NCBI GenBank assembly: GCA_903822175.1
Contig: CAIJOB010000012.1
Coordinates: forward strand, 1 to 64,000
Length of the DNA stretch: 64,000 nucleotides
DNA from: an uncultured Alphaproteobacteria bacterium
GTDB taxonomy: Bacteria; Pseudomonadota; Alphaproteobacteria; Caulobacterales; Caulobacteraceae
Direction: 5' to 3'
The position numbers and the translations under genes are program-made. Positions 1-51,836 of this stretch are shown here, one piece after another (the first letter of the stretch is position 1; every line of letters starts with the position of its first letter). The notes under the pieces are model-generated. The model was not told where the DNA came from and did not search any database. It was given only the letters and a program-made list of their open reading frames with translations.

Positions 1-418
1 ATCTTCCCCGGTGAAAGAATTTTACAATCCTAAGACCTTCATCATTCACGCGGCATGGCTGCGTCAGGCTTTCGCCCATTGCGCAAGATTCCCTACTGCT
101 GCCTCCCGTAGGAGTTTGGGCCGTGTCTCAGTCCCAATGTGGCTGATCATCCTCTCAGACCAGCTATGGATCGTAGGCTTGGTGAGCCTTTACCTCACCA
201 ACTACCTAATCCAACGCGGGCTACTCCAATGGCGATAAATCTTTCCCCCGAAGGGCACATACGGTATTAGCTGAAGTTTCCCTCAGTTGTTCCGTACCAA
301 AGGGCATATTCCCACGCGTTACTCACCCGTCCGCCGCTCACCCGAAGGTGCGCTCGACTTGCATGTATTAGGCCTGCCGCCAGCGTTCGCTCTGAGCCAG
401 GATCAAACTCTCAGGTTG
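1..418 (-). rRNA. rrs: 16S ribosomal RNA, 5' part, cut by the window edge
   Basis: Read on the minus strand, the universal 27F site lies at about 392-411, with seven bases before it giving a 5' end near 418. The universal 338-357 site lies at about 97-116. Between them the sequence follows the alphaproteobacterial variable regions V1 and V2. The gene runs off the left edge, so only about the first 418 bases are present. Stops scattered in all frames and the conserved primer sites rule out a coding gene; the short open frame at 11-238 is spurious. The exact 5' end is estimated by alignment from memory to the E. coli numbering. Confidence 0.97.
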
Positions 419-33302: not shown

Positions 33303-33313
33303 TTGCAATGCAA
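33303..33313. promoter_or_regulatory. Small palindrome between the NMO gene and mutA
   Basis: TTGCA-A-TGCAA, a perfect 5-bp dyad, lies 62 bp before mutA and 65 bp before the divergent NMO gene. The only established comparison I can offer is the TTTGCAAA half-site of short-chain acyl-CoA regulators (PccR/ScfR) in other alphaproteobacteria, which it only partly matches. Confidence 0.3.
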
Positions 33314-33374
33314 CCCCGCCACCTTGCCCGCGCGTGAACTTGACGCCAAGGGCCTTGCGGGACCATCACGCCGC

Positions 33375-34795
33375 ATGGCCGACGCACCCGCCCTCACGCC
33401 CAGTCTCTCCGGCGATTTCGCCGCCGCCACGGAGGCCGACTGGCGGGCCCTCGTAGACAAGACCCTGGGCGAGGCGCCATTCAGCTCCCTGGAGAAGGCC
33501 ACGGTCGAAGGGTTGACCATCGAGCCGCTCTACGCCGCCGCGTCGGGGTCGCAGGCGCCGGCCCGCGCAGTCCCCGCCGATCGGGCCTGGGAAGTCGCGA
33601 CGCTGACGGCTCATCCGGACCCAGCGCGCGCCAATGCCGAGATCCTCGCCGACCTGCGCGGCGGCGCGGCCTCGGCGGTGATCCGCATCGACCCCACCGG
33701 CAAGGCAGGCGTTGCCGTCGGCTCCGCCGCCCAACTCACCCGCGTGCTGGAGGGCGTGATCCTGGAGTTCGCGCCGGTGGCGCTGGACGCCGGCTTCCTC
33801 GGCCCCGCCGCCGCCGACTGGCTGGGCGCCGCGGCCAAGGCCTCGCCCACCGCGCTGATCCGCTTCCACCTCGACCCCTTGAGCGCCTACGCCCTGGCCG
33901 GCGCGAGCCCGGGGCCGATCGAGGCGCACCTGATCTCCGCGGCCGATGTCGCCGCGCGCCTGGCGCAGACCTATCCGCAAGCCCAGCTGTTCCTGGCGTC
34001 GGGCCGCGTGGTGCATGAGGCCGGTGGCGGGGAAGCCGGCGAGATCGCCTTCGCCACCGCCAGCGCCATCGCCTACGCCAAGGCCTTGGTCCACGCCGGC
34101 ATGCCGATGGCTGACGCCCTCGGGCGCATCACGCTCGGCCTCTCCGCCGACGCCGACTACTTCCTGACCATCGCCAAGCTGCGGGCCGCCCGCGCGGTCT
34201 GGGCGCGGATCGCAGGCGCCTGTGGAGCCGATCCGACAGCCCGCATCGAGGCGCGGTCCTCGCGGCGCATGCTGACCGCCAAGGACGCCTGGACCAACAT
34301 GATCCGGCTGACCGCCGCCGGCTTCGGCGCCGCGGTCGGAGGCGCCGACACCGTGCTCCTGGGGAACTTCACCGACGCCCTGGGCCTCCCCACCGAGTTC
34401 GCCCGCCGCCAGAGCCGCAATGCCCAACTGGTGCTGATGGAAGAGGCGCACGTCGGCCGCGTCGCCGACCCGGCCGCCGGCTCCGGCTATGTCGAGGCTC
34501 TAACCGACCAGATGGCCCGCGCCGCCTGGGCGCAGTTCCAGGCCATCGAGGCGGCCGGCGGCGCCATCGCCGCGCTCGCCTCGGGCCACATCGCTCAGGG
34601 CGTCCAGGCGGCTCTCGCCGCGCGACCCGCCGACCCGAAGATCATCGGCGTCACCGCCTTCCCGCCAGCCAAGGACGCGCCTGTCGAGGTCGAGATCGCC
34701 GCCGCCAAGGCCGTGGCCGCGCCCGCCGCGCGGTTGCCGGGGCCCGACAGCGCGTGCCCGCCGCTGACGCCCATGCGGATTTCGGAGGCGTTCGA

Positions 34796-34799
<4 letters not shown>
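33375..34799 (+). CDS. mutA: Methylmalonyl-CoA mutase small (beta) subunit
   Basis: 474 residues. It matches the inactive TIM-barrel subunit of the heterodimeric mutase (for example [20 protein letters not shown] and the [18 protein letters not shown] segment). Classical MutA proteins are about 620-640 residues and end in a vestigial B12-binding domain; this one stops after the barrel and linker, so that domain is missing. Its stop overlaps the mutB start by 4 bp. The ATG at 33375 was chosen over an upstream extension that lacks family similarity. Confidence 0.9.
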
Positions 34800-36952
<2,153 letters not shown>

Positions 36953-40624: not shown

Positions 40625-40654
40625 GAAAAACGCCGGGGCGTGGGCCCCGGCGTT
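40625..40654 (-). terminator. Intrinsic terminator of the copper monooxygenase-like gene
   Basis: On the minus strand AAACGCCGGGGC pairs perfectly with GCCCCGGCGTTT over 12 bp with a 4-base loop, followed by a run of T (40625-40629 read in reverse). It lies 25 bp past the stop codon of the gene at 40679-42715. Confidence 0.9.
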
Positions 40655-40678
40655 TCGCAGTCTCGAAAGGCCCGAGCC

Positions 40679-42715
40679 TTAGCGGTTGGTCGGGCTGGCG
40701 TTGAAGGCGGCGGCCTGTTCGGCGGCTTCCGACTTCGGCTTGGCCGAGGGCGGCGCGGCGGCGGAGCGGCGGGCGCCGCCCATCATCTGCTGGGCGGCGG
40801 CCAGTTCGCCCGCGTCCAGGAAGCCGTCGTGGTTCTTGTCCAGCATGTCGAAGTACTTGGAGAGCTGGGCGCCCATCCGGCCGCGCAGCTCGGCCTTCGA
40901 CAGCTTGCCGTCGTAGTTGGAGTCCATCATGCCGAGCAGGCGGGTCTTGCCCATGTCCTCGTCATAGTTGACCCGGTGCGAAGAGGTTTCATCGACCCAG
41001 CGGTAGCTCAGGTTGGTGAACAGCATCTCCTGGAACGACTGCTCGCCCCAGGTGACGTTGATCTTCGGGTCCGGGTTCGACGGGTTGCGCGCCGAGTTGT
41101 CGTAGACGTAGTGGGCGATGATCTTCGAGCCCGCCGGCACCTTGATCGGCTCGGCGAAGGTGTAGGCCCGCTGCCAGTTGAAGTCGTAGCGCGGCAGGCT
41201 CAGCAGCTGCTTCATCTTGCCGTCGGGGTACTGGATCCACAGGTCCGATGAATAGGCGCGGTAGTGGGCGTGCGGGAAGGCCGAGTAGAGCAGCGCGTCC
41301 TTCGGGAACTGCACGTAGGCGGTTTCCTTGTGGCGCGCCTCGCCCGCCGGGATCTCGATGTTGGTGTTGATCACCACGACGCCGTGCATGATCAGCTCCG
41401 GCGGCTTGTCGTAGAAGTAGAGCGCGACCTGGCTCTTATCCTCCACTTCCTTGCCGAACGGGGTGTAGTGCATCTGGAAGCCATAGGCGCCGCCCGGCGG
41501 CAGGTAGACGCCGGCGTTCTTCGGCTCCATCGAGCTTTCCGCGCCCACCGCATAGCCCGCGCCCAGCGAGGCGGCCCACTTGGTCTCGGACGAGTGACCG
41601 TCCTTGGGCATCTCTTCCATCCAGCCGGTCAGCAGGTGGTGTACGCCCTGGCGCGAACCCGGCTTGACGGTCGAGGCGCGGACCCACTTGCCTTCGGTCA
41701 GCGTGCCGGCCACCGCCGGGCGCTGATAGTCGACCACGCCCGAGGCGGGGATCTTGTAGGACGGGACGTCGATGATCAGGTCAGGCTTGCCCAGCGGCCA
41801 TTCGGCGGCCACGCGCTTCACCGCGCCCAGGGTGTCGGGGCCATCGCCGCGCGGCGCGCCCTGCTCGACCCAGTTGACCAGGGTCTTGATCTCTTGGGCG
41901 GTCAAACGCTTGTCGTCGGAGAAGTGCCCGACGCGCGGGTCGGCGTGGTAGGGCGGCATCCGGTCGGTGCGGATCACTTCGCGGATCATCGGGGCGAAGC
42001 CCTTGACCATGGCGTAGTTGTTGAAGGCCATCGGGCCGATCCCGCCCTCTTCGTGGCAGGCCACGCACTTGGCTTCGAGGATCGGGGCGACATCCTTGGA
42101 ATAGGAGACCTTGGTCGCGCCGCCGAAGGCGATCTGGGCGCCGCTGCTGGCGGGGCCGACGGTCGCGGCGGTGTTGCCGGCCAGGAGCGCATCGAGCGCA
42201 GCCGGGACGCCGGAGACGGCGCCGCGATAGGTCACGGTCCAGGTCTTCGGATTGATCACCAGCGCTTCAGCCGAGTGAGTGACGCCCAGGCTTTCGCCGA
42301 TGATCTGCTTGTCGTCCATGAGGACGGGGATCTTGTAGCCGACCTTGGTCACTTCGGCCTGGATGGCCTCCATTGAGTCCTTGGCCGACGAGTTCAGCAT
42401 CATGAACTCGACGCGCTTCTGGCCATAGTCCGTGGCGAGCTTGTTCAGCTGCGGGGCCAGCTTCTGGACCACCGCATCGCCGTTCTGCTGGGTCACCAGC
42501 ACGACGGCCGGGGCGTCGGCCACCCGATAGAGTTCGTGGGCCTCCATCGTGGAGTCCACCAGCATGAAGTTGTCGACCTTGGTCGGGGACGCGGCGGTCG
42601 CCGCGACGCCGGAGCCGTGCGCCATGGCGCTTTGCGTCGTCGCATCGCTCGTGCAGCCAACCACCAGGGCGGCGCTCGCCAGCAGGCCCAGAACTCCGAA
42701 TTTCGCACTGGTCAT
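40679..42715 (-). CDS. Lipoprotein with redoxin, cytochrome c, copper monooxygenase and EF-hand domains
   Basis: 678 residues from the ATG at 42715. Order: lipoprotein signal with lipobox VVGC (Cys 21); thioredoxin-fold domain about 45-185 without any cysteine; cytochrome c motif CVACH at 217-221; a domain like ascorbate-dependent type II copper monooxygenases (PHM/DBM) with a full ligand set, His 359, His 360 and His 416 for one copper and His 482, His 484 and Met 564 for the other; then two EF-hands, DSNYDG at 598 and DKNHDG at 626. It should sit in the periplasm, lipid-anchored. The haem could feed electrons to copper in place of ascorbate (inference). The substrate is unknown. It has its own terminator and no operon partner. 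Confidence 0.85.
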   Translation of the reverse strand: MTSAKFGVLGLLASAALVVGCTSDATTQSAMAHGSGVAATAASPTKVDNFMLVDSTMEAHELYRVADAPAVVLVTQQNGDAVVQKLAPQLNKLATDYGQKRVEFMMLNSSAKDSMEAIQAEVTKVGYKIPVLMDDKQIIGESLGVTHSAEALVINPKTWTVTYRGAVSGVPAALDALLAGNTAATVGPASSGAQIAFGGATKVSYSKDVAPILEAKCVACHEEGGIGPMAFNNYAMVKGFAPMIREVIRTDRMPPYHADPRVGHFSDDKRLTAQEIKTLVNWVEQGAPRGDGPDTLGAVKRVAAEWPLGKPDLIIDVPSYKIPASGVVDYQRPAVAGTLTEGKWVRASTVKPGSRQGVHHLLTGWMEEMPKDGHSSETKWAASLGAGYAVGAESSMEPKNAGVYLPPGGAYGFQMHYTPFGKEVEDKSQVALYFYDKPPELIMHGVVVINTNIEIPAGEARHKETAYVQFPKDALLYSAFPHAHYRAYSSDLWIQYPDGKMKQLLSLPRYDFNWQRAYTFAEPIKVPAGSKIIAHYVYDNSARNPSNPDPKINVTWGEQSFQEMLFTNLSYRWVDETSSHRVNYDEDMGKTRLLGMMDSNYDGKLSKAELRGRMGAQLSKYFDMLDKNHDGFLDAGELAAAQQMMGGARRSAAAPPSAKPKSEAAEQAAAFNASPTNR

Positions 42716-42785: not shown

Positions 42786-42894
42786 TATATCACCCATCCA
42801 CGTTACACGAATATTGCCGCGCTTGTATGCGGCGACGTGTCATCCGTTAGTCGCCGCCCAGCGCGGGATCAGATGCGGGTCTCGACCAGAAACT

Positions 42895-49360: not shown

Positions 49361-51361
49361 CTAGAACCTCACCCGCACGCCGCCATAGGCCGCGCGGCCG
49401 GCGCCCTCGAAGCTGAACACCTCCTGATAGCCCTGGTCGAACAGGTTCTCGACCCGGCCGTAGAGCTCGGTGGTCTTGGTCAGCTTCCAGCTCGCGTTGA
49501 GGTTCACGAGCGTGAAGGCCTTCAGCGACGTCAGCACCGGCGTGAACGACGGGTCGGTGAAGGCCAGGTCGTTCTGCTTACCGTTGTAGCGGACCGTCAG
49601 GGTGCCGCTGAACGGCTGGTCCGCCGGCGCCCAGGTCAGGTTGGCGCTGGCGATGTCACGCGCCCGCCGCACCGCCTGGCCGTCGAAGGTCACGAACATC
49701 CCTGCCAGGATCACCGAGCGCGTCTGCGGCGCGTCCAGGTAGGTGTAGGCCGCATCGATCCGCCAGCCGCCCTCCAGCGCCGCATCGGCGAACAGCTCGA
49801 CGCCCTTCTGGGTGTCGGTCCCGGCCAGGTTCACCGGCTGAGCGACGCCGGTGGCGAAGCTGGTGGTGATCTCGTCGGTGAGCCGGCTATCGAAGTAGGT
49901 CGCGCCCGCATGCACGCGGCCGTCGGCAAAGGTCTGGTCGACACCCGCCTCCCAGCCGTCGGACCTCTCGGGCTTGAGGTTCGGATTGCCGATGAAGCGA
50001 CCGGCCACGAAGTCGAACAGCTCGCTGAAGCTCGGGTCCTTGATCCCCGACCCGGCCGCGGCGTGGACCCGCGTCCCTTCGTCGAACTTCCAGCCCGCCT
50101 GCACCCGATAGGTGGTGTCGTCGTCGAAGCGGTTGTTCCAGTCGTGCCGCACCGAGGCGCTGAACGAGCCCTGGTTGTCGAGCGTGGCGTCGTAGGCGCC
50201 GACCAGTCCGGTGTTGTCCAGATGCTCCTCGCCCAGGAACGCCCCGAACGGCGAGACCGTGGTCTGGCTGGTGTTCTGCTCGGCGTCGACGGCGAGCGTG
50301 ACCCGCTGCTTCAGGTGCTCGTCGCCGAAGCGGAACGCGCCTTCGTAGGACTCGATGAACCGGGTCCCGTGGTCGCCGCTCTGCTTGGTGATCAGCTGGC
50401 CGGCGGCCGGCGCGAAGGCGTTGGCCACGTCGAAGCCGGAACGCCGCGTGTCCGCCACCTGCGCCGAAACGGCGTTGGTCAGTCGTTCCTCCATCGACGA
50501 AAGCTCAGCCTTCACAAGGCCATAGAACGCATCGTTGACGTAGTGCACGCCGGGCGAGTCCAGAGTCAGGCCAAAGGTCGGCTTGCTGGAGTCCTCGCCG
50601 CTGTCGTCGGTGTCGGCGTCGGTGTGAGAAAAACGGCCCACAGCGGTGACGTGCAGGTTCGCTAGCGGCGACCAGATCAGCTTGGCCGACACGCCCGCGC
50701 TGTCGGACCCCAGGTCGCGATGTCCGCCCGGCGCCACCGCATAGCCGTCGGTGTGCAGGCCGCTGGCGTTGACCGTATAGTCGAGGTCGCCGTTGACGCC
50801 GGCGAAGCGGACACCGCCGCCATAGGTCCCCATGGAACCGCCCTCGGCGCGGACGCGAATGCCGGGCGCCTCGGCCCCCGTCAGCGTCGAATAGCTGATC
50901 ACGCCGCCGATGGCGTCGGAGCCGTAGAGCGCCGACTGCTGGCCGCGCAGCACCTCGATGCGGCTGGCCTCGTCGGCGATGATCGTGCCGAAGTCGAACT
51001 CGTCGAAGAACGGATCGGACGCCTTGATCCCATCGACCAGGACGAGCGTGTGGTTGCCCTCGGTCCCGCGCAGCCGCACCTGGGTGAAGCTGCCGACGCC
51101 GCCGGTCCGGCTGACCGCCACGCCGGGCACATCACGCAGCACGTCGGAGACCACGCGCACCTGGCGGTCCTGCATGGCCTGATCGTCGATGACGGTGACC
51201 GACGCGGCCACCAGGTCGGCGGGCGTGGCGTCGCCGGAGCGGTTGGCGGTGACCACCAGCGGATCGAGCGTGGATGGCGCGGCGGTTTGCTGCGCCAAGG
51301 CGCTAAGCGGACTGGCCGCGAGGATCGCCAGCAAGCTGGCTCCATAGAAGTAGCGGGGCAT
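49361..51361 (-). CDS. btuB: TonB-dependent vitamin B12 outer-membrane receptor
   Basis: 666 residues from the ATG at 51361 (GGAGGG upstream). Signal peptide to about LSALAQQ, TonB-box-like LDPLVVTAN, plug domain (MQDRQVRVVSDVLRDVPGV), 22-strand barrel and a C-terminal aromatic end (YGGVRVRF). The open frame extends to 51562, but that part is the riboswitch and leader. B12 specificity is inferred from the riboswitch and the transporter genes behind it. Confidence 0.93.
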   Translation of the reverse strand: MPRYFYGASLLAILAASPLSALAQQTAAPSTLDPLVVTANRSGDATPADLVAASVTVIDDQAMQDRQVRVVSDVLRDVPGVAVSRTGGVGSFTQVRLRGTEGNHTLVLVDGIKASDPFFDEFDFGTIIADEASRIEVLRGQQSALYGSDAIGGVISYSTLTGAEAPGIRVRAEGGSMGTYGGGVRFAGVNGDLDYTVNASGLHTDGYAVAPGGHRDLGSDSAGVSAKLIWSPLANLHVTAVGRFSHTDADTDDSGEDSSKPTFGLTLDSPGVHYVNDAFYGLVKAELSSMEERLTNAVSAQVADTRRSGFDVANAFAPAAGQLITKQSGDHGTRFIESYEGAFRFGDEHLKQRVTLAVDAEQNTSQTTVSPFGAFLGEEHLDNTGLVGAYDATLDNQGSFSASVRHDWNNRFDDDTTYRVQAGWKFDEGTRVHAAAGSGIKDPSFSELFDFVAGRFIGNPNLKPERSDGWEAGVDQTFADGRVHAGATYFDSRLTDEITTSFATGVAQPVNLAGTDTQKGVELFADAALEGGWRIDAAYTYLDAPQTRSVILAGMFVTFDGQAVRRARDIASANLTWAPADQPFSGTLTVRYNGKQNDLAFTDPSFTPVLTSLKAFTLVNLNASWKLTKTTELYGRVENLFDQGYQEVFSFEGAGRAAYGGVRVRF

Positions 51362-51562
51362 CAAAGGCCCTCCGTTTGCCTGCGTCTGAACGACAGGCGG
51401 AGAGCCTCCTTGCGGGGCGAACCCGTAAGGCCGACGGCCCGGTGGCGCTGACGCGTTGAGGCGCCGGCCGGTCCGGTCGAAACGGCTCTCCACCGCTTCT
51501 GCTCGTCGCTCAGACGGAGTTCCGCGCCTCGGATTCCACTGATCCAGAGACTCGAGCGACAC

Positions 51563-51762
51563 GCACCGACCGGTTTCCTGGCTCGCGGGTCATAGCGTCA
51601 TACGCGGACCTTCCCGGACATTTTGCCCAGTGGTTGGAGGAAGGCTTGTGGCCTTCCGCCGTGCGTATGCGCTCACCGCTCACAGTTGCAGGGACAGCCG
51701 CGGATCAGGGGCCCGAAAGCCCCCTACCGCGTTCCCGATTAAGCCCCGAAGGGCATCGGTGC
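51563..51762 (-). promoter_or_regulatory. Cobalamin riboswitch
   Basis: On the minus strand the aptamer core is clear: the CTGTCCCTGCAACTGTGAGC segment, the CACTGGGC and CCGGGAAGG elements, and the B12 box GAGCCAGGAAACC (51572-51584). A closing stem pairs GCACCGA (read from 51762) with TCGGTGC (ending at 51563). It lies 200 bases before the btuB start. No T-run terminator is seen between it and btuB, whereas a GGAGAGCC / GGCTCTCC stem lies ahead of the start, so control of translation or folding near the start is more likely than attenuation. Confidence 0.95.
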
Positions 51763-51836
51763 GCAGGGTACTAAACCCACGGTTACGCTGTGGGCGGCGT
51801 TTCTTTGATCTCGTTTGGCGGGATTGTCCACGCTCC

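What the first reader, a model, noticed from the sequence alone, without database searches (positions are those of the whole stretch)
40679..42715. Five-module periplasmic protein: lipid anchor, dead redoxin, cytochrome c, copper monooxygenase, EF-hands
All six copper ligands of PHM/DBM-type monooxygenases are in place (His, His, His; His, His, Met). They are preceded by a CxxCH haem motif and a cysteine-less redoxin domain and followed by two EF-hands. The cytochrome could deliver electrons directly, replacing ascorbate, and calcium may gate the enzyme. It has its own strong terminator and a palindromic site upstream, so it looks like a self-contained redox system.
Basis: partly seen in the sequence, partly recalled or inferred. 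Interest (0 to 1): 0.7.

Follow-up and report, generated by a model that had tools for sequence, protein, structure and literature searches.

The report
Cytochrome-fused bacterial copper monooxygenase family
A bacterium carries eight copies of an exported enzyme in which a haem protein is built onto a copper enzyme related to those that make noradrenaline and amidated hormones, which suggests that the bacterial version is fed electrons by haem instead of vitamin C.

Summary
The ORF 40679-42715 (minus, 678 aa) is a putative lipoprotein with a cysteine-less redoxin, a mono-haem cytochrome c, a PHM/DBM-type copper core and two EF-hands. It is not a one-off: the genome holds eight full-length copies (this one included), and 26 of 60 genomes of the genus have strong matches. 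Among 104 aligned members the only invariant His and Met of the copper domain are the six ligand positions. A shorter natural relative (cytochrome c + copper core only) links the family to PHM with all six ligands aligned. The core unit is therefore cytochrome c + copper monooxygenase; a 2-Cys redoxin and then EF-hands seem to have been added. The two redoxin cysteines are both present (48) or both absent (56), never single, so "dead redoxin" is right for this copy but derived. Some paralogs adjoin quinoprotein-like dehydrogenases that carry a cytochrome c; this copy does not.

Most likely function: periplasmic O2-dependent C-H hydroxylase, reduced through its own haem. Substrate unknown; calcium gating untested. 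Filed as a new variant of a known kind.

The parts
40679..42715 (-). whole gene, 678 aa, five modules
42653..42715 (-). signal peptide with lipobox VVGC, Cys21
   Evidence: sequence; Cys at this alignment column in 53 of 103 members
42116..42580 (-). redoxin domain, residues 46-200, both cysteines lost
   Evidence: Pfam AhpC-TSA 46-167; family profile matches 2ywi, 3u5r, 2cvb
42476..42478 (-). Asp80 at the position of the first redoxin cysteine
   Evidence: C in 47, D 42, S 12, A 1, T 1 of 103
42137..42139 (-). Ala193 at the position of the second redoxin cysteine
   Evidence: C in the same 47 of 103
41825..42106 (-). cytochrome c domain, residues 204-297
   Evidence: Cytochrome_CBB3 21.9 bits, below cut-off 27; 55 of 56 members match at E<=0.1
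42053..42067 (-). haem motif CVACH 217-221
   Evidence: 103 of 103
41957..41959 (-). Met253 of MPP, probable sixth haem ligand
   Evidence: 103 of 103; M243 is equally invariant
40982..41806 (-). PHM/DBM-type copper core, residues 304-578
41636..41641 (-). CuH ligands His359 and His360
41468..41470 (-). CuH ligand His416
   Evidence: aligned with DBH His333
41270..41272 (-). CuM ligand His482
   Evidence: aligned with DBH His412
41264..41266 (-). CuM ligand His484
   Evidence: aligned with DBH His414
41024..41026 (-). CuM ligand Met564
40889..40924 (-). EF-hand loop 1, residues 598-609
   Evidence: canonical; strict pattern in 87 of 103
40805..40840 (-). EF-hand loop 2, residues 626-637
   Evidence: canonical; strict pattern in 94 of 103
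40628..40655 (-). terminator-like hairpin, 12-bp perfect stem, with a run of five U (three in the stem)
   Evidence: not listed by the consensus scan
42802..42815 (-). conserved upstream element AAYATTNNTGTAAY
   Evidence: exact in 11 of 16 orthologous upstream regions, 3 variants, 2 without; one site in the window, 0.03 expected; one exact site in the genome with a trailing G

Best explanation
It is an exported, lipid-anchored monooxygenase, probably periplasm-facing. The copper core works like PHM/DBM: CuM (His482, His484, Met564) binds O2 near the substrate and hydroxylates a C-H bond; CuH (His359, His360, His416) passes on an electron. The fused cytochrome c (His221 and probably Met253) takes single electrons from a periplasmic cytochrome or quinoprotein and reduces the copper sites in place of ascorbate. 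The redoxin was a 2-Cys, peroxiredoxin-like module in the ancestor, plausibly guarding against peroxide or keeping copper reduced; in this copy it is a retained structural domain. The EF-hands stabilise or dock the C-terminus through calcium. Paralog expansion serves different substrates. Shown by sequence: domains, ligands, paralogy, all-or-none cysteine pair. Inferred: order of module gain, catalysis, electron path, substrate class, calcium role, location.
For: The six ligands are the only invariant His/Met among 10 His and 7 Met of the copper domain, 104 of 104. Bridge protein L176 (cytochrome c + copper core, no redoxin or EF match): PF03712 52.9 and PF01082 31.7 bits, both over cut-off; PHM (1opm) E 2.8e-7 with all six ligands aligned; family profile against it 99.8%, E 2.2e-29, over cytochrome and copper core together. 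DBH hit E 0.0082 aligns H416/H482/H484 with DBH H333/H412/H414 (DBH ligand numbers from passages of PMC4846438). CxxCH and M253 in 103 of 103. Immediate neighbours carry CxxCH in 9 of 229 cases against 7 of 770 more than three genes away, orthologous loci counted repeatedly. A quinoprotein-like protein with CxxCH lies directly downstream, same strand, of two of eight own copies.
Against: No structure, so copper geometry and haem-copper distance are untested. No known substrate. The window copy itself has no redox neighbour; nearby are transglutaminase-like genes, an MFS transporter and methylmalonyl-CoA mutase. The window copy alone scores below the Pfam cut-off for Cu2_monoox_C and is not among the six own copies found with that family; PF01082 is found in 0 of 56 members at E<=0.1. 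One haem must deliver two electrons in turn.
Confidence: 0.68

Rival explanations
1. It is a copper monooxygenase, but electrons come from a small reductant (ascorbate-like or a quinol) directly at CuH, and the cytochrome c serves docking, sensing or removal of electrons.
For: PHM and DBM are reduced by ascorbate (passages of PMC4846438 and PMC6123673). No cytochrome or quinoprotein gene was seen beside the window copy.
Against: Cytochrome c and copper core are fused even in the smallest relative found, and the haem motif is invariant in 103 of 103.
Confidence: 0.13
2. It is not an oxygenase but a copper-binding protein: a store, chaperone or sensor, with the redoxin helping to load copper as Sco or TlpA proteins do.
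For: Trx-fold domains are known to act in copper insertion (recalled). Two-Cys redoxin present in 47 of 103 members. A HupE/UreJ-type permease lies in one related locus, L146.
Against: Both sites, including the Met, are kept as in PHM. The redoxin pair is missing in 56 of 103 members while no member lacks a copper ligand.
Confidence: 0.1
3. The copper core uses hydrogen peroxide or acts as an oxidase of an organic compound, with the cytochrome c carrying electrons away to the respiratory chain.
For: A peroxiredoxin-like module and a free redoxin beside eight of the loci hint at peroxide.
Against: The PHM site arrangement is known for O2-dependent hydroxylation with electron input (passages); nothing here tests the direction of flow.
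Confidence: 0.09

Closest known systems
Peptidylglycine alpha-hydroxylating monooxygenase (PHM, 1opm; rat, species recalled)
   Same: Two-subdomain copper core; all six ligands align through bridge protein L176.
   Different: Ascorbate-dependent; no fused cytochrome c, redoxin or EF-hands. The family's copper core has no Cys column shared by 5 or more of 103 members, so PHM's disulphides (recalled) are absent.
Human dopamine beta-hydroxylase (4zel)
   Same: Best PDB match of the family's own copper-domain profile (E 0.0082; the only other match has E 1.7). Its N-terminal DOMON domain aligns with a cytochrome domain of CDH (passage of PMC4846438), a parallel to an N-terminal electron module.
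   Different: DOMON is not a c-type cytochrome; ascorbate donor; no redoxin or EF-hands.
PRX-like/thioredoxin-like proteins 2ywi, 3u5r, 2cvb
   Same: Best solved relatives by sequence of the redoxin module (E 3.3e-18, 6e-18, 6.3e-11); the printed alignments show N.CP and a C-terminal GC.IKW cysteine in all three.
   Different: Stand-alone chains with both cysteines; the window copy has Asp and Ala there.
   Same: Lipobox-like N-terminus, cytochrome c with MPPY, copper core, collinear over 355 columns.
   Different: No redoxin, no EF-hand match.
Redoxin-cytochrome c-copper proteins of family code f39 (L159, L178, L180, L181)
   Same: GCVF second redoxin Cys, CxxCH, MPPW and all ligand motifs; redoxin confirmed by Pfam for L159 only.
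   Different: They end without EF-hand loops.

Membership tests
PHM/DBM copper type II monooxygenases (PF01082/PF03712) | Three His at CuH, two His and one Met at CuM | tested here: met
   Aligned with PHM via L176; invariant in 104 of 104
PHM/DBM copper type II monooxygenases (PF01082/PF03712) | Curated Pfam score for the window protein itself | tested here: not met
   PF03712 13.2 bits, cut-off 23; own paralogs L005 28.5 and L007 27.9 pass; three of eight own copies pass in the genome search
PHM/DBM copper type II monooxygenases (PF01082/PF03712) | Homology over both subdomains | tested here: met
   hhalign 99.8%, E 2.2e-29 to L176, which passes both Pfam cut-offs; PF01082 itself found in 0 of 56 members at E<=0.1
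PHM/DBM copper type II monooxygenases (PF01082/PF03712) | Two copper sites more than 11 A apart | not testable with these tools
   structure prediction switched off
PHM/DBM copper type II monooxygenases (PF01082/PF03712) | O2-dependent hydroxylation with ascorbate | not testable with these tools
   needs the bench
c-type cytochrome | CxxCH and a downstream Met ligand | tested here: met
   103 of 103 for C217, C220, H221, M253; M243 equally invariant, so which Met ligates is open; Pfam score of the window copy below cut-off
Peroxiredoxin-like 2-Cys redoxin | Redox-active cysteine pair | tested here: not met
   Asp80 and Ala193 in the window copy; pair present in 47 of 103 members
EF-hand calcium proteins | Canonical D.[DNS].[DNS]G......E loops | tested here: met
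   both loops in the window copy; both in 79 of 103 members
Lanmodulin (lanthanide EF-hands) | Family score | tested here: not met
   17 bits against cut-off 135
XopAW calcium-binding family | Family score | tested here: not met
   32.9 bits against cut-off 120, residues 590-670 only

The most novel reading that the evidence does not exclude
A haem-fed, ascorbate-free branch of the PHM/DBM superfamily in bacteria, in which a hydroxylase and a neighbouring quinohaemoprotein dehydrogenase form a self-fuelling pair: the copper core makes an alcohol, the quinoprotein oxidises it, and part of the electrons return through cytochrome c to the copper core. Paralogs differ in substrate, and loss of the redoxin cysteine pair marks a switch in how each copy handles peroxide or copper.
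Probability: 0.2. Interest if true: 0.82.

Novelty: new variant of a known kind. Interest (0 to 1): 0.57.

Why it matters
[quoted passage not shown] A natural fusion to a cytochrome c would let the electron input be watched by haem absorbance and varied by mutation. It also points to a little-noticed set of periplasmic C-H hydroxylases, eight in one genome, that could act on recalcitrant compounds. None of the listed titles or abstract starts of my library searches describes such bacterial fusions. Only searches listed every hit (6, 15 and 0 papers), and subscription journals are mostly not held, so this does not show that they are unpublished.

Tried and rejected
A plasmid search with the protein found nothing. 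Synteny around many cysteine-bearing paralogs (DUF885, 2-hydroxyacid dehydrogenase, glycosyltransferase) looks like shared ancestry of the locus rather than function. I considered that Cys loss relaxed the redoxin. Its dN/dS is higher than that of the copper core (0.53-0.63 against 0.15-0.35 in three comparisons with the window copy; 0.34 against 0.19 between two orthologs). But the ratio of redoxin to copper-domain divergence is the same with and without cysteines (1.37 and 1.38), so the domain seems maintained. The sign test for paired change on well-supported branches gives 4 of 4 the same way, p 0.125, which cannot reach 0.05; the argument rests on 0 of 104 mixed states and 7-9 inferred changes on a quick tree with 31 of 100 inner branches unsupported. 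The upstream element was not matched to a known sigma factor. The 80 loci are the best of 548 relatives and my other members are genus kin, so the presence of EF-hand loops in this set is biased towards close kin; the more distant ones that I read to the end lack them.

Full report
What is in the window. The ORF at 40679-42715 on the minus strand encodes 678 residues. The modules are: a signal peptide ending in a lipobox (VVGC, residues 18-21); a redoxin domain (46-200); a cytochrome c domain with CVACH at 217-221 and MPP at 253-255; a copper domain (about 304-578); two EF-hand loops (598-609, 626-637); and an Ala/Pro-rich tail. Pfam supports the redoxin and EF-hands above cut-off. The cytochrome (21.9 bits, cut-off 27) and the copper domain (13.2 bits, cut-off 23) fall below it for this sequence alone.

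It is a family, not a single protein. The genome (4.02 Mb, 42 contigs) holds eight full-length copies: this one and seven others at 45-60% identity to it. Of 100 related genomes searched, 30 gave a match at E<=0.001. By my count of that table 26 of the 60 genomes of the same genus code (own included) have a best E below 1e-100; the other four of the 30 match only the EF-hand stretch. One genome (G058) has eight long matches and another (G041) seven, some cut by contig ends. The best 80 come from records titled Phenylobacterium, Caulobacteraceae, Caulobacterales, Hyphomonadaceae, Hyphomonas, Parvularculaceae, Aquisalinus, Halieaceae, Cellvibrionales and unnamed proteobacteria. In evenly drawn samples the copper domain is rare: 2 of 289 genomes of the class and 3 of 398 of the phylum by my profile, and 2 of 398 by PF03712, with 0 of 14 control genomes; these counts include the window's own genome.

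The copper sites. In 103 distinct full-length members all six ligands are invariant. With the outgroup L159 added (104 rows), 5 of the 10 His and 1 of the 7 Met of the window's copper domain are invariant, and they are exactly the six. The family's own copper-domain profile finds human dopamine beta-hydroxylase as best PDB match (E 0.0082; the only other match has E 1.7). Counted along the printed alignment with one constant offset of 39, H416, H482 and H484 stand opposite DBH H333, H412 and H414 (ligand numbers from a passage of PMC4846438); the HH pair and the Met lie outside that local alignment. The stronger link is a 414-residue protein from genome G468 (L176). It passes the curated cut-offs of both Pfam halves (52.9 and 31.7 bits) and matches PHM (1opm, E 2.8e-7), with VHH, QVHY, HxH and DEM all aligned. 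It aligns with the family profile over cytochrome and copper core together (355 columns, 99.8%, E 2.2e-29), again with all six ligands opposite each other. PHM ligand numbers were seen in passages of PMC6123673. Against the reading: the window copy itself does not reach the Pfam cut-off, is missed when its own genome is searched with PF03712 at E<=0.01 (six of eight copies found, three over the cut-off), and PF01082 is seen in 0 of 56 members.

Order of assembly. L176 has cytochrome c and copper core only. L159, L178, L180 and L181 carry a redoxin cysteine motif, cytochrome c and copper core but end without EF-hand loops (L179 is cut). The window family has EF-hands: both loops fit a strict canonical pattern in 79 of 103, loop 1 in 87 and loop 2 in 94. 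So the constant unit in what I saw is cytochrome c plus copper core, which is the best sequence argument that the haem serves the copper sites. The order of gain is an inference from these few relatives, not from a rooted tree.

The redoxin. Its closest solved relatives are the PRX-like proteins 2ywi, 3u5r and 2cvb, which carry a cysteine at N.CP and another in a C-terminal GC.IKW motif. In the family these two positions (80 and 193) are Cys together in 47 and non-Cys together in 56 of 103 members, never mixed; the outgroup L159 has both. On a tree built without the redoxin columns the state changes at least 7 times, 8 with the outgroup, or 9 losses if regain is excluded; on well-supported branches 4 independent pairs all agree, p 0.125. 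This is what a functional cysteine pair looks like, and its loss in the window's clade (Asp80 in 22 of 22 rows examined) makes the redoxin dead in the thiol sense. It still seems maintained: its divergence relative to the copper domain is the same with and without the cysteines (1.38 and 1.37), although its dN/dS is higher than that of the copper core. Eight loci whose member keeps the pair have a free redoxin gene directly downstream; the six that I read carry the same two cysteines.

Neighbours. The window copy stands alone. Upstream on the same strand are two transglutaminase-like genes (one tested; the other by clustering), then a gap of about 180 bp. Downstream is the terminator-like hairpin, then a gene without a Pfam match; an MFS transporter and methylmalonyl-CoA mutase lie beyond. 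This order is partly kept in its orthologs. Some 73-106 bp before the start codon lies AAYATTNNTGTAAY, exact in 11 of 16 orthologous upstream regions, with 3 variants and 2 lacking it; it also stands before one member outside the orthogroup, L096, and before none of the seven other own copies. It occurs once in the window (0.03 expected), and with a trailing G once in the genome. It is probably a promoter or operator of this gene; its factor is unknown. Other copies have redox partners. A beta-propeller protein with CxxCH, related to quinohaemoprotein alcohol dehydrogenases (one tested: 1kb0 E 6.9e-16; all below NCBIfam's cut-off for the PQQ alcohol dehydrogenase family), lies directly downstream on the same strand of two of the eight own copies. 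The genome has ten matches to it at E<=1e-20, two of which are probably pieces of one gene. In L072, L146, L147, L150 and L152 the locus holds a small protein with a C-terminal CxxCH; DUF6644 membrane proteins were found in L150. Immediate neighbours with CxxCH are 9 of 229, against 7 of 770 farther off; orthologous loci are counted repeatedly and no test was made, so this is indicative only.

How it probably works. [quoted passage not shown] The fused haem is the likely source of both electrons, in two one-electron steps. Bacteria generally lack ascorbate (recalled), which fits. Calcium at the EF-hands is likely to be structural or to set docking; nothing tests gating. The substrate is unknown; divergent copies suggest several.

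What is known and what is new. The copper core belongs to the PHM/DBM superfamily by homology and ligands; activity is untested. The combination with c-type cytochrome, redoxin and EF-hands, the eight copies and the all-or-none cysteine pair are not described in any title or abstract start that my searches listed, most of which were capped lists. I file it as a new variant of a known kind.

Noticed in passing
window 51551-51775 (-): Cobalamin riboswitch (95.1 bits) next to a TonB-dependent receptor at 49361-51562; the window also has B12-dependent methylmalonyl-CoA mutase genes at 33303-36952.
   Followed up: partly
window 1-418 (-): Truncated 16S rRNA match at the start of the contig, so the contig probably breaks in an rRNA operon.
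   Followed up: no
L176:1483-2724 (-): Minimal cytochrome c + PHM protein; in its family 1 of 74 genomes searched has a match, namely its own. A good target for a first structure.
   Followed up: partly
L120, L123, L125, L126, L134, L142, downstream of the focal gene: Free redoxin with N-terminal CP and C-terminal GCA(V/L/I)EY directly after members that keep the cysteine pair; two more loci (L119, L122) have the same cluster there.
   Followed up: partly
L150:1688-8902 (+) and L152: Same-strand run: DUF3089 protein, quinoprotein-like protein, small CxxCH protein, two DUF6644 membrane proteins, focal gene; looks like an electron-transfer module (Pfam run on L150 only).
   Followed up: partly
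L041:6109-8606 (-): ECF-type sigma factor with DUF6596 and a TetR regulator divergent to a quinoprotein-linked copy.
   Followed up: no
L039:764-1405 (+) and L038:7997-8671 (+): TetR-family regulators lie beside two other own copies, hinting at separate induction of each.
   Followed up: no
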